A stretch of 64,000 bases of DNA from an uncultured Clostridia bacterium (GTDB taxonomy: Bacteria > Bacillota > Clostridia > TANB77 > CAG-465): NCBI GenBank assembly GCA_944388585.1, contig CALXJI010000002.1, positions 186,001 through 250,000 on the forward strand. The letters are read 5' to 3'. Below, one piece after another: positions 1 through 59,199 of the stretch. The notes below the pieces were generated by a model that ran no database searches, was not told the DNA's origin, and worked only from the letters and a program-made list of their open reading frames with translations. The stretch's first letter is position 1. Each line of letters starts with the position of its first letter. Position numbers and translations under genes: made by a program.

Positions 1-454
1 TCATAGCCTCTTTAGCTTTACTTATTTCAGATTTTATAAGTCCTACAGGATAAACTTTTTCATCTATATTAAGTTTTTTCATAACTTCTTTTATAACTTT
101 TTCTTTATCTATTTCATCAAATATATTAAAATCCCTTGTATATCCCAAAAGCTCAATTTCTCTTTTTAAAATTCTTACACAAACAGAATGAAATGTACCA
201 AGCCACATATCATTTGAAACTTGTCCTACTAAAGCTTCAACTCTTTCTTTCATTTCTTTTGCAGCCTTATTTGTAAATGTAATGGCAAGTATCTGCCATG
301 GTTTTACAATTTCCTTTTCAAGTAAATATGCAATTTTATATGTTAATACTCTAGTTTTTCCAGAGCCTGCACCTGCAAGAATTAATAGTGGGCCTGCCAT
401 ATATTCAACTGCTTCTTGTTGTTTATCGTTTAAATTTTCTAATAAATTGCTCAT
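1..454 (-). CDS. pcrA: UvrD/PcrA-type DNA helicase, N-terminal part (runs off window)
   Basis: The minus strand from ATG 454 reads MSNLLENLNDKQQEA, then GPLLILAGAGSGKTRVL (Walker A) and AITFTNKAAKEMKERV, the hallmark start of superfamily 1A helicases of the UvrD/PcrA/Rep group. These unwind DNA 3' to 5' in nucleotide-excision repair, mismatch repair and replication-fork rescue. About 151 codons are present; the rest lies before the window. The start follows AGGAGT at good spacing and lies 14 bases after the stop of the upstream gene, so the two are probably cotranscribed. The choice of PcrA over UvrD is by Gram-positive convention and is not proven by the fragment. Confidence 0.93.
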   Translation of the reverse strand, partial: MSNLLENLNDKQQEAVEYMAGPLLILAGAGSGKTRVLTYKIAYLLEKEIVKPWQILAITFTNKAAKEMKERVEALVGQVSNDMWLGTFHSVCVRILKREIELLGYTRDFNIFDEIDKEKVIKEVMKKLNIDEKVYPVGLIKSEISKAKEAM

Positions 455-468
455 TTTATATTACTCCT

Positions 469-1188
469 TTATAATTCTAAAATTCCACCATAATCTACAA
501 CATCTAATCCTTTAAAATCTATTATTTTCAATTTTCTATCTGTTATAAATTTCCTAATTTTATTATCTTTATCTATCTTATCTAAATCTCCAAACACTAT
601 TATACTATTTCCTATTTTTCCAATTGCTCCACCAATAAAACCAGTCATATTACTATAATTGTTATATTCATCTTTTAATTTTATATCTGGTATATAGTCT
701 AATAGTAAAACACTAAAATTATTTGCTCTTAATTTTTCCGCAATCTTTTTATCTGTAGTAATAACACTACTTTCATCAATTACTGCTATTGAACAATTAG
801 AATATCCTTGTTCAACATTTATTAACTCATAACCATTTTCTTTTAGACATTTTAACACCACTTTATCTGTATATTTAAAATTATGTATTGCATAATTTCC
901 TACAATACATATATTATACTTTATATCATCTGGATATTTAGTTCCGACTTCTTCCTTACCAGATATAATATTATATCCACTATTTTTAATTAAAAATAAC
1001 ATATCTTCATATTTACTTTTCTCTACAATTAAATTATCTCCAACTTTAACTGCAAATATATCTACATGTGATGCTATTTCTGGATATACATTTTGTGATC
1101 TATCAATACTTACAAGTCTATATCCCATATATTTTAACATATTCTTTTCAACATTTCTCATTCTACAATCTACTAAAATATACTGCAT
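469..1188 (-). CDS. DUF6873-type protein (GME-fold)
   Basis: This 239-residue protein resembles the clostridial family called DUF6873 (guanidino-group-modifying enzyme fold), whose members have no established reaction. It starts MQYILVDCRM and contains the segments SIAVIDESSVITTD and GGAIGKIGNSIIVFGDL, typical of that group. No signal peptide or membrane segment is visible, so it should be cytoplasmic. The ATG at 1188 follows GGAGGG with 8-base spacing. It lies directly upstream of the helicase gene in the same direction and may share its transcript. Family assignment is from memory of conserved segments and is moderately sure; function is unknown. Confidence 0.6.
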   Translation of the reverse strand: MQYILVDCRMRNVEKNMLKYMGYRLVSIDRSQNVYPEIASHVDIFAVKVGDNLIVEKSKYEDMLFLIKNSGYNIISGKEEVGTKYPDDIKYNICIVGNYAIHNFKYTDKVVLKCLKENGYELINVEQGYSNCSIAVIDESSVITTDKKIAEKLRANNFSVLLLDYIPDIKLKDEYNNYSNMTGFIGGAIGKIGNSIIVFGDLDKIDKDNKIRKFITDRKLKIIDFKGLDVVDYGGILEL

Positions 1189-1276
1189 ATATCTTTCCCT
1201 CCTTTTCTTTTTTAATTAAATTTCATACATATTATTTATATAATCATACCGAACATAAATTCTAATTTATTATATC

Positions 1277-1310
1277 AAAAAAAAAATAGTATTTCAATTA
1301 TGAAATACTA
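1277..1310 (-). terminator. rho-independent terminator after ypeB
   Basis: A perfect 10-bp stem (TAGTATTTCA/TGAAATACTA) with a 4-base loop is followed on the minus strand by a run of ten T. It lies just past the ypeB stop. Modest T runs on the other side could let it work both ways. Confidence 0.85.
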
Positions 1311-1322
1311 ATTTTTTGTGTC

Positions 1323-2696
1323 TTAAATTGCCATTGTACCTCCTGGTGTATTAAGCAATATATATATTTTTTCTTCTTGTAATGTATTAGCATTTATATA
1401 TACTAAAAATTCTTTATCATCTATATTTCCTTTAAATTCATATGCTAATACTTCATCTTTAGAATCTGTTGGAATTATACAAAGTCTTTGAGAATCAATA
1501 TTTAAATCTTTATATAATTTTTCTTTTGCTTGCTCTACAGAATTTTTAGGTGAAATTTCTCTTACTTTATGATTATATATATATCCATTTGCTTCAAAAT
1601 TCATTATTTCTCCGTTATCTAAAGCTACCTTTACTTTTATTAAATCTGAATAAATAATCACATTATCTTGCACAGCTGCAAAAGAAATAGTAACCATATT
1701 TTCACCTTTAAGATAATATGTCGGTTCTACATCATATATTCCAACACTGTTAATATAATTTAGAGCATATTCTTTTGCCTTCTCTATGTCAATTTTTTCT
1801 TCCTCTACTTTTCTATCTGAAATCATTTGATATAATCTTGCATCATTTTTTGTTACATATAATGTCTTTACTGTTTCTATTTCATATATCTTTGCCTCAT
1901 ACACATATAATGGAATTTTTCCGTCTTGCTCTTGTTTAAATGTTATACTCTCCAAATTTAATTCATCTTTTAATATATTTTGTGCTTCATCATTAGATAC
2001 AACATTTTGACTTAAAAAACTAGGCTCTCTTGTGAGTACATGTTCTGAAAAAGCACCATCATAGATTAATCCTTCATACTCTGTAAAAGTTTTACCTATC
2101 TTGTTAACACTAGATAATTCTTCCTCTGCTTGAGTATTTTTTATTTTCTCATTTCCTACTTTTTCTAGTTCATCCCACTTTATGTTTTTATTATTTAACT
2201 CTTTATATATTTCTTCTGTAACACTAGATAAATCATATATTTTAGAATATATAGTATCTATTTGCTCTTTATAATTTGAAATATCATCTCCATTTATTAT
2301 GTTTCTCATTAAAGAATATGAAAAATCACTGACTTGTGTCAAAAATTTAGATACATTTGATACACTCCCTTCTGAAAACGGCAATATATCTAAATTAGAT
2401 TTTGCACTATTAGACTTTGCAAAAATACTTGCAAGAGTAGTTAAAGTATACGTATCATTACCTGTAATTTTTAATTTAACTATTTCGTTTTCAACATTAT
2501 TTATATTCGCTACAAAATCATACATACTTCTATTATATTCATCTTGAACAGATTGCTTTTCTATTTTAAATTGCTTTAAAAGTACCATTGTTCCTAAAAT
2601 TATTAAAGAAAAAATACTAAAAAATAATATACCAAGTTTTTTGCTTCCAATCTTTTTTTTAAAACATATTATTTTCTTTTCAAACTTTTCAAACAT
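1323..2696 (-). CDS. ypeB: Germination protein YpeB
   Basis: This 457-residue protein matches YpeB in length, architecture and context. An N-terminal basic stretch precedes one membrane segment at about residues 22-40, followed by a large extracytoplasmic region whose C-terminal half has PepSY-like repeats (for example ARLYQMISDRKV and the ELKEKLYKDLN-type helices). In Bacillus, YpeB is needed for correct localisation and stability of the cortex-lytic enzyme SleB in the dormant spore. The gene lies 2 bases downstream of the sleB-like gene, the classic sleB-ypeB operon order, and ends at a strong terminator. The pairing supports function in cortex hydrolysis during germination. The C-terminal NTPGGTMAI is intact. 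Confidence 0.9.
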   Translation of the reverse strand: MFEKFEKKIICFKKKIGSKKLGILFFSIFSLIILGTMVLLKQFKIEKQSVQDEYNRSMYDFVANINNVENEIVKLKITGNDTYTLTTLASIFAKSNSAKSNLDILPFSEGSVSNVSKFLTQVSDFSYSLMRNIINGDDISNYKEQIDTIYSKIYDLSSVTEEIYKELNNKNIKWDELEKVGNEKIKNTQAEEELSSVNKIGKTFTEYEGLIYDGAFSEHVLTREPSFLSQNVVSNDEAQNILKDELNLESITFKQEQDGKIPLYVYEAKIYEIETVKTLYVTKNDARLYQMISDRKVEEEKIDIEKAKEYALNYINSVGIYDVEPTYYLKGENMVTISFAAVQDNVIIYSDLIKVKVALDNGEIMNFEANGYIYNHKVREISPKNSVEQAKEKLYKDLNIDSQRLCIIPTDSKDEVLAYEFKGNIDDKEFLVYINANTLQEEKIYILLNTPGGTMAI

Positions 2697-58432: not shown

Positions 58433-58464
58433 AAAGAATATAGCTAACTCTATATTCTTTTTTT
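58433..58464 (+). terminator. terminator after the CmpB-like gene
   Basis: A perfect 11-bp stem (AAAGAATATAG/CTATATTCTTT) with a 6-base loop and a T run. Confidence 0.88.
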
Positions 58465-58782
58465 AGCTTTATTAATTATCATATATTTAAATTACCTACC
58501 CCCTTTTTCAGCCACAATTTATTATAGATCTAAAAATTAACTTGCTTTATAGAATAGACTTATGAATTAGTTTTCATATCTACATTTTTAGATCCTTATT
58601 AACTGTTAGCCCTATTATACATCTATTTTTAAGATTTTTTTAAGAATCGATGTAATTAGTCCATTTTCATGCTTATTTTATTATTTTTTACAATTAACCA
58701 CGATTTTTCCAAATTTTACCACATTTTTTTATTTAAATATTTAATTTTATTATTATTTTATATAATAAGTACATGGTAAATA
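58465..58782. other. noncoding AT-rich stretch with an 11-bp inverted repeat
   Basis: No supported gene lies here on either strand. GATCTAAAAAT (58527-58537) and ATTTTTAGATC (58584-58594) are perfect inverted copies 46 bases apart. I looked for a tracrRNA anti-repeat to the CRISPR array that follows and did not find a convincing one. Confidence 0.5.
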
Positions 58783-59015
58783 ATTACATTTTTCTCCCAA
58801 CTTTATTTATGATATAATAATCTAACATGGGATTTGGTTGAATGTATGTTATACTTCTCTTCTAATTTTATTTATGATATAATAAATGGGGGGTTTTCTC
58901 GTCCATGTGTACTGTTATACTTCTCTGCTAATTTTATTTATGATATAATACAAAAAAAGAAGACAACGAGGTTGCTGAAGTTATACTTCTCTTCTAATTT
59001 TATTTATGATATAAT
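58783..59015 (+). CRISPR. Small type II-like CRISPR array, 4 repeats and 3 spacers
   Basis: Four 36-bp repeats lie at 58783-58818, 58848-58883, 58914-58949 and 58980-59015, with spacers of 29, 30 and 30 bp that differ fully from one another. The repeat starts GTTATACTTCTC and ends TTTATGATATAAT. Copies 2 and 4 are identical, copy 3 has one change and copy 1 has seven. Near-complementary ends (GTTATA/TATAAT), 36-bp repeats and 30-bp spacers fit type II (Cas9) arrays. Each repeat ends in TATGATATAAT, a perfect extended -10 box (TRTGnTATAAT), so each spacer may be transcribed from its own promoter as in type II-C arrays of Neisseria. A terminator follows the last repeat. No cas gene is in the window. 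Confidence 0.9.
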
Positions 59016-59023
59016 TGTATTAC

Positions 59024-59062
59024 AAAAAAGCTTGAAAAATAAACATATTCAAGCTTTTTTAT
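59024..59062. terminator. terminator after the CRISPR array
   Basis: A perfect 13-bp stem (AAAAAAGCTTGAA/TTCAAGCTTTTTT) with an 11-base loop begins 9 bases after the last repeat. It should stop transcription from the array and also transcripts coming from the other side. Confidence 0.9.
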
Positions 59063-59199
59063 TTTATTTTTTTATAAAATTTATATTGATTTTTATAATT
59101 ATTTTTTTTTTTAAATAAAAAGTTTATATAATAAAAATTTAAATACTTTTATTTAAAGAATATTAATGATATAATATTTATCATTAAAGGAGAATTAAA
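59063..59199 (+). promoter_or_regulatory. AT-rich upstream region with extended -10 box for the phosphatase gene
   Basis: TGATATAAT at 59167-59175 is an extended -10 box 24 bases before the ATG. No clear -35 box. The rest is almost pure A/T; it may also act as the array's leader if spacers are added at this end. Confidence 0.5.

What the first reader, a model, noticed from the sequence alone, without database searches (positions are those of the whole stretch)
58783..59062. Orphan CRISPR array whose repeats each end in a perfect extended -10 promoter
Seen: four 36-bp repeats with three unrelated 29-30-bp spacers; each repeat ends TATGATATAAT, matching TRTGnTATAAT exactly, and a strong terminator follows the array. 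Known: in Neisseria and Campylobacter type II-C systems a -10 box at the repeat's end drives one crRNA per spacer without a leader promoter. Inference: this clostridial array would make each guide by independent transcription, starting inside the spacer about 7 bases after the box and giving guides of about 22-24 nt. No cas9, cas1 or cas2 lies within 58 kb upstream or 5 kb downstream, so Cas9 must act in trans or be lost.
Basis: partly seen in the sequence, partly recalled or inferred. Interest (0 to 1): 0.78.

Follow-up and report, generated by a model that had tools for sequence, protein, structure and literature searches.

The report
Secondary CRISPR array, one promoter per repeat
This is an ordinary small CRISPR memory array whose every repeat ends in its own promoter; it is not an orphan, because the same genome carries the matching Cas9, tracrRNA, Cas1 and Cas2 on another contig, and one of its three memories matches the mobilisation gene of small plasmids.

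Summary
In detail: four 36-nt repeats (the first degenerate) and three spacers of 29, 30 and 30 nt, each repeat ending TATGATATAAT, then an intrinsic terminator. The reading that each repeat carries its own promoter is well supported. It is also the known design of type II-C CRISPR, already reported for Campylobacter and noted for Clostridium cellulolyticum. The "orphan" part is wrong. Contig C7 of the same genome holds a complete II-C locus: tracrRNA, a 1128-aa Cas9, cas1, cas2 and an array with nearly the same repeat. Repeats 2-4 of the window pair with that tracrRNA (-32 to -37 kcal/mol); the degenerate first repeat does so poorly (-17) but keeps its promoter box intact. A sister species without a detectable cas9 has the same array site, first and last repeats kept, interior replaced. 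The terminator hairpin is conserved with compensatory changes across nine arrays. Spacer 2 encodes, antisense, the VHMDEKTPH motif of MobV plasmid relaxases. No transcript data exist here, so start sites and guide lengths are predictions. Verdict: a new member of a known kind, a satellite II-C array served in trans. Gene-sized segments joined exactly at repeat edges in several of these draft genomes are probably assembly chimeras but unresolved.

The parts
58436..58465 (+). intrinsic terminator-like hairpin with T tail of the upstream gene, about 320 nt before the array; would insulate it from read-through
   Evidence: fold -6.5 kcal/mol, z -2.1; sequence
58783..58818 (+). repeat 1 (oldest, 'extra' repeat): degenerate in its tracrRNA-pairing half, extended -10 box intact
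   Evidence: duplex energy -17.3 vs -32 to -37 kcal/mol for repeats 2-4
58808..58818 (+). extended -10 box TATGATATAAT of repeat 1; predicted start near 58825
   Evidence: sequence; identical in the orthologous first repeat of sister genome G010
58819..58847 (+). spacer 1, 29 nt, target unknown
58848..58883 (+). repeat 2; extended -10 at 58873-58883; predicted start near 58890
58884..58913 (+). spacer 2, 30 nt; antisense to the VHMDEKTPH motif of MobV (Mob_Pre) plasmid relaxase genes
   Evidence: 167 plasmid records, 160 mobilizable; flanking translations; Pfam Mob_Pre 4e-52 for the best target gene
58914..58949 (+). repeat 3; extended -10 at 58939-58949; predicted start near 58956
58950..58979 (+). 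spacer 3, 30 nt, target unknown
58980..59015 (+). repeat 4 (last, leader-proximal in II-C); extended -10 at 59005-59015
59016..59066 (+). downstream flank: terminator hairpin (59024-59036 with 59048-59060) plus T-rich tail, homologous to the flank of the cas-linked array; probable leader as well
   Evidence: fold -12.4 kcal/mol z -4.0; 9 of 15 pairs with compensatory changes across 9 arrays

Best explanation
This is a small secondary (satellite) array of the genome's own type II-C CRISPR-Cas9 system. RNA polymerase with the housekeeping sigma factor binds the extended -10 box at the end of each repeat and starts about 7 nt into the following spacer. Each short RNA therefore carries about 23-24 nt of spacer plus the next repeat. 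That repeat pairs with the tracrRNA made upstream of cas9 on contig C7, the duplex is loaded into the C7-encoded Cas9 and trimmed in the repeat (RNase III in relatives), and Cas9 then cuts invading DNA such as MobV-type mobilizable plasmids. Repeat 1 serves only as the promoter of spacer 1, so its pairing half has decayed. Transcripts end at the hairpin terminator just after the array, which is probably also the leader where new spacers enter. Shown here: array, box, tracrRNA pairing (computed), Cas9/Cas1/Cas2 in the genome, conserved terminator, plasmid-like spacer 2. Inferred: start sites, processing, action in trans, interference.
For: The same box recurs at repeat spacing at C6:78-682, C7:158-234 and C7:73479-73621. 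One Cas9 in the genome, C7:68715-72098, 1128 aa, no stops. PADLOC: Cas9 7e-177, Cas1_II 1e-103, Cas2_II 4e-44. tracrRNA locus just upstream of cas9 with a full-length anti-repeat (L010:8511-8546), further hairpins and terminator. Pairing energies -32.5, -37.2, -32.5 for repeats 2-4 and -34.9 for the cas-linked repeat, vs -9.1 +/- 2.8 for shuffled repeats. Degenerate first repeats change at 1 of 44 positions in the last 11 nt (at the N) but at 42 of 100 in the first 25; for window and G010 alone 0/22 vs 15/50, Fisher p 0.003. Relatives' repeats with other sequence still end TATGATATAAT or TATGGTATAAT. Terminator covariation. Spacer 2 matches MobV relaxase genes. Same design in the literature: C. 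jejuni dRNA-seq (PMC3656092), C. cellulolyticum (PMC7038990), survey of over 650 II-C systems (PMC12080349).
Against: No transcript data. The array is short, its repeats differ from the cas-linked repeat at two internal positions, and the corresponding array in sister G010, with no cas9 detected, has lost its spacers; the window array could be a decaying relic that no longer acquires spacers. Spacers 1 and 3 have no known target. The selection test pools first repeats, two of which (C6, G009) were found by a rule that favours an intact box. The genome is a 12-contig draft, so the distance from array to cas9 is unknown.
Confidence: 0.87

Rival explanations
1. A dead relic array: once part of the same II-C system but no longer transcribed or used.
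For: Only three spacers; first repeat degenerate; sister G010 has the same site with no cas9 detected, a decayed tracrRNA-like relic and no spacers.
Against: Repeats 2-4 keep full tracrRNA pairing and perfect boxes, the terminator is intact, and a complete cas9-cas1-cas2-tracrRNA locus is present in the same genome.
Confidence: 0.08
2. A single-promoter array: transcription starts only upstream of repeat 1 and the TATAAT ending of the repeat is incidental in a 26% GC genome.
For: AT-rich genome; promoter-like sites in the region are no more common than in shuffles when a -35 hexamer is required.
Against: The exact 11-mer TATGATATAAT occurs 79 times vs 19 (reversed control) in the genome, about 22 of the 79 in CRISPR elements; boxes are kept in degenerate first repeats; relatives and distant II-C systems share the ending.
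Confidence: 0.04
3. A regulatory or non-CRISPR tandem promoter element.
For: Solo repeats sit just upstream of ribosome-binding sites and ORFs in relatives.
Against: Unrelated spacers of 29-30 nt, pairing with a tracrRNA, a plasmid-relaxase-matching spacer and an array terminator all fit CRISPR.
Confidence: 0.01

Closest known systems
Campylobacter jejuni type II-C CRISPR-Cas9 (Dugar et al. 2013, PMC3656092)
   Same: cas9-cas1-cas2, tracrRNA, a -10 box in the 3' part of each repeat that drives each crRNA; one RNase III step
   Different: here a second array lies away from the cas genes; transcription not measured
Clostridium cellulolyticum H10 type II-C (PMC7038990)
   Same: II-C repeats ending like an extended -10; array transcribed opposite to the cas genes; guides carry 23-26 nt of spacer
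   Different: different Cas9 and repeat sequence; that study concerns the array at the cas locus, this one a satellite array
Type II-C 'extra repeat' with decayed pairing half (PMC12080349)
   Same: first, oldest repeat is mutated mainly in its first 15 nt while it must keep promoter function; spacers enter at the last repeat
   Different: here shown on an orthologous pair of arrays in two sister species, with a conserved terminator on the downstream side

Membership tests
type II-C CRISPR-Cas | Cas9 with RuvC and HNH, compact size | tested here: met
   1128 aa, RuvC_III Pfam 4.6e-15, PADLOC Cas9 7e-177, best PDB relatives are Cas9 proteins aligned over nearly the full length
type II-C CRISPR-Cas | only cas9, cas1, cas2; no csn2 or cas4 in the operon | tested here: met
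   ORFs of 80 aa or more between tracrRNA and array are cas9, cas1, cas2 only
type II-C CRISPR-Cas | tracrRNA with an anti-repeat to the array's repeat | tested here: met
   L010:8511-8546 anti-repeat; window repeats 2-4 pair at -32 to -37 kcal/mol
type II-C CRISPR-Cas | 36-nt repeats, about 30-nt spacers, -10 box at the repeat end | tested here: met
type II-C CRISPR-Cas | one transcription start per spacer | not testable with these tools
   needs RNA 5' end mapping
type II-C CRISPR-Cas | interference by Cas9 with guides from this array | not testable with these tools
   needs plasmid interference or Cas9 pull-down
orphan CRISPR array (no cognate cas genes in the genome) | no matching effector in the genome | tested here: not met
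   complete II-C locus on contig C7
solitary repeat units / RNA anti-CRISPRs (considered for solo repeats on C6, G024, G016; PMC10651486) | single repeat carried by a mobile element and transcribed as a decoy | tested here: inconclusive
   solo repeats adjoin mobile-element-like genes but the junctions look like possible assembly chimeras

The most novel reading that the evidence does not exclude
In this genus, promoter-bearing II-C repeats flank and drive gene-sized segments as well as spacers: repeat - gene - repeat units (410-bp ORF segment at the orthologous site in G010, 252-bp and 1.5-kb segments on C6 of this genome, a CopG-like gene in G024), joined exactly at repeat edges. If real and not assembly chimerism, CRISPR arrays here would act as sites for gene cassettes expressed from repeat promoters.
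Probability: 0.1. Interest if true: 0.6.

Novelty: new member of a known kind. Interest (0 to 1): 0.27.

Why it matters
It removes an apparent puzzle (an array without Cas9) and adds an AT-rich lineage, whose relatives are recorded as uncultured Bacilli or Clostridia, to the II-C systems with one promoter per repeat. The pair of orthologous arrays in two sister species gives a clean natural test of what the first repeat is for: its guide-pairing half decays while its promoter box does not.

Tried and rejected
Spacer targets: spacers 2 and 3 with up to 3 mismatches hit only themselves in 385 genomes of the order, own genome included (spacer 1 was not run there). The 3' 20 nt of all three spacers and the exact repeat gave nothing in IMG/VR. 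Spacers 1 and 3 gave only chance-level or no hits in phages and plasmids. Phage and plasmid collections gave no relative of the C6 array region and no phage hit for the small protein next to it. No short-period exact repeats were found next to cas9 in G018, G004 or G008. Rejected: 'orphan array'. Considered and not pursued: PAM inference from junction flanks (C at +5 in 4 of 7, weak).

Full report
Observation. Four 36-nt repeats start at 58783, 58848, 58914 and 58980, with spacers of 29, 30 and 30 nt. Repeats 2 and 4 are identical, repeat 3 differs by one base, and repeat 1 differs at seven of its first 25 positions and at none of the last 11. Nothing else in the 64 kb matches the repeat with fewer than nine mismatches. 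All four repeats end TATGATATAAT. Outside the array the pattern TRTGNTATAAT occurs 12 times in the window against once for the reversed pattern, and across the genome the exact 11-mer occurs 79 times against 19 (about 22 of the 79 are in CRISPR elements). That is what a real promoter signal in this 26% GC genome should look like.

The array is not an orphan. A pattern search of the window's own assembly (G000, 1.57 Mb, 12 contigs) found the same box at repeat spacing at C6:78-682, C7:158-234 and C7:73479-73621. A Cas9 RuvC domain lies at C7:70779-71165, and the whole protein, 1128 aa without stops, at C7:68715-72098. It is followed by cas1 and cas2 (PADLOC E-values 7e-177, 1e-103 and 4e-44 for the three), a hairpin terminator, and an array on the opposite strand. 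No csn2 or cas4 is in the operon. Upstream of cas9 is a tracrRNA locus with a promoter-like sequence, an anti-repeat over the full 36 nt (L010:8511-8546), further hairpins and a terminator. This is a complete type II-C locus. Contig C2 (this window) and C7 are not joined in the assembly, so their distance is unknown.

Pairing. Against this tracrRNA, repeats 2, 3 and 4 of the window pair at -32.5, -37.2 and -32.5 kcal/mol, and the cas-linked repeat at -34.9. Shuffled repeats average -9.1 (sd 2.8, best -17.9). Repeat 1 reaches only -17.3, and its first 14 nt pair at -1.6 against about -8 for the others. Guides followed by repeats 2-4 should therefore load on the C7 Cas9, whereas an RNA ending in repeat 1 should not. 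This matches the published pattern that the first, oldest 'extra' repeat of II-C arrays is mutated mainly in its first 15 nt and must still serve as the promoter of spacer 1 (PMC12080349).

The first repeat in a sister species. Genome G010 (same genus, no Cas9 match) has the same array site. DNA identity is 96.9% from the upstream genes to window 58819, the end of repeat 1, and 93.3% from window 58979, the start of repeat 4, onward. The two first repeats differ in their first 20 nt but share TATGATATAAT. Over four degenerate first repeats, 42 of 100 positions changed in the first 25 nt and 1 of 44 in the last 11, that one at the free position of the box. Two of the four were found by a rule that favours an intact box. 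The pair not chosen that way, window and G010, gives 15 of 50 against 0 of 22 (Fisher p 0.003).

Terminator and leader. The 51 nt after repeat 4 fold into a 13-bp hairpin with a T tail (-12.4 kcal/mol, z -4.0). The same position after the last repeat is a hairpin in nine arrays of this and related genomes, and 9 of 15 pairs carry changes on both sides that keep the pair. So the terminator is under selection. Because II-C spacers enter at the last repeat (PMC12080349), this flank is probably also the leader. A start from repeat 4 would run straight into the hairpin.

Guides. By analogy with C. jejuni, where each crRNA starts from a -10 box in the repeat before it (PMC3656092), and with C. cellulolyticum, whose guides carry 23-26 nt of spacer (PMC7038990), starts 7 nt after the box would give guides of 23, 24 and 24 nt. 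This is inference; no RNA data were available.

Targets. Spacer 2, read antisense, encodes VHMDEKTPH. It matches 167 plasmid records at an E-value limit of 3, 160 of them classed as mobilizable, most of the listed ones in mobV where a gene is annotated. The best are 25 of 26 nt (E 3e-3) in Campylobacter jejuni pGMI16-002 and a Subdoligranulum plasmid. The translations around the match in six records all contain VHMDE(K/R)TPH, and the C. jejuni gene is Pfam Mob_Pre at 4e-52. Several mismatches fall in spacer positions 1-3, which the predicted guide leaves out. This spacer was most likely taken from a mobilizable plasmid or related element. Spacers 1 and 3 have no credible match.

What it is. 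Anatomy, repeat, tracrRNA and neighbours all say type II-C. The window array is a satellite of the genome's own system, likely inherited vertically (shared site with G010), probably old, and still equipped to make usable guides. Novelty is low: promoters in II-C repeats have been reported since 2013.

Side observation, unresolved. In several of these draft genomes arrays or single repeats join mobile-element-like sequence exactly at a repeat edge. The C7 end matches a Tn916-like regulator region of phage record MN270261.1 at 95% up to the last base before a repeat and departs there. The DpnD/PcfM region on C6 matches G052 and G053 up to the base before a repeat, and a gene fragment on C6 begins right after a solo repeat. 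G024 and G016 show similar cuts, and G010 has a 410-bp segment with a 120-aa hydrophobic ORF between its first and last repeats. The simplest account is assembly chimerism through 30-nt spacers identical to protospacers in co-sampled elements. Real repeat-gene-repeat cassettes are not excluded and long reads would decide.

Noticed in passing
L010:13647 (-), C7 end; L122: Array repeat joined to a Tn916-like regulator region (95% identical to phage record MN270261.1) exactly at the repeat edge; probable assembly chimera via a spacer, or a real junction.
   Followed up: partly
L012 (C6) 113-2592, minus strand: Ten-repeat array plus two solo repeats separated by 252-bp and 1.5-kb mobile-element-like segments, each cut exactly at a repeat edge; oldest unit has a degenerate repeat with TATGCTATAAT.
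   Followed up: partly
L076:3677-4158 (G010:C12): At the site orthologous to the window array, a 410-bp segment with a 120-aa hydrophobic ORF lies between the first and last repeats; a 53% identical relative in G016 is not next to a repeat.
   Followed up: partly
L142 (G010:C2:127200-128400): Decayed tracrRNA-like sequence in a genome without a detectable cas9, next to a region homologous to the left flank of the C6 array.
   Followed up: no
L010:8511-8546, minus strand: The complement of the tracrRNA anti-repeat contains a perfect extended -10 box, so antisense transcription across the tracrRNA promoter region is possible.
   Followed up: no
L078:2945, 3593, 3979 (G020); L077:1305 (G025); L079:1 (G006); L080:4372 (G009): Single or degenerate copies of the repeat in relatives without a Cas9 match; in G020 one lies just before a ribosome-binding site and ORF.
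   Followed up: partly
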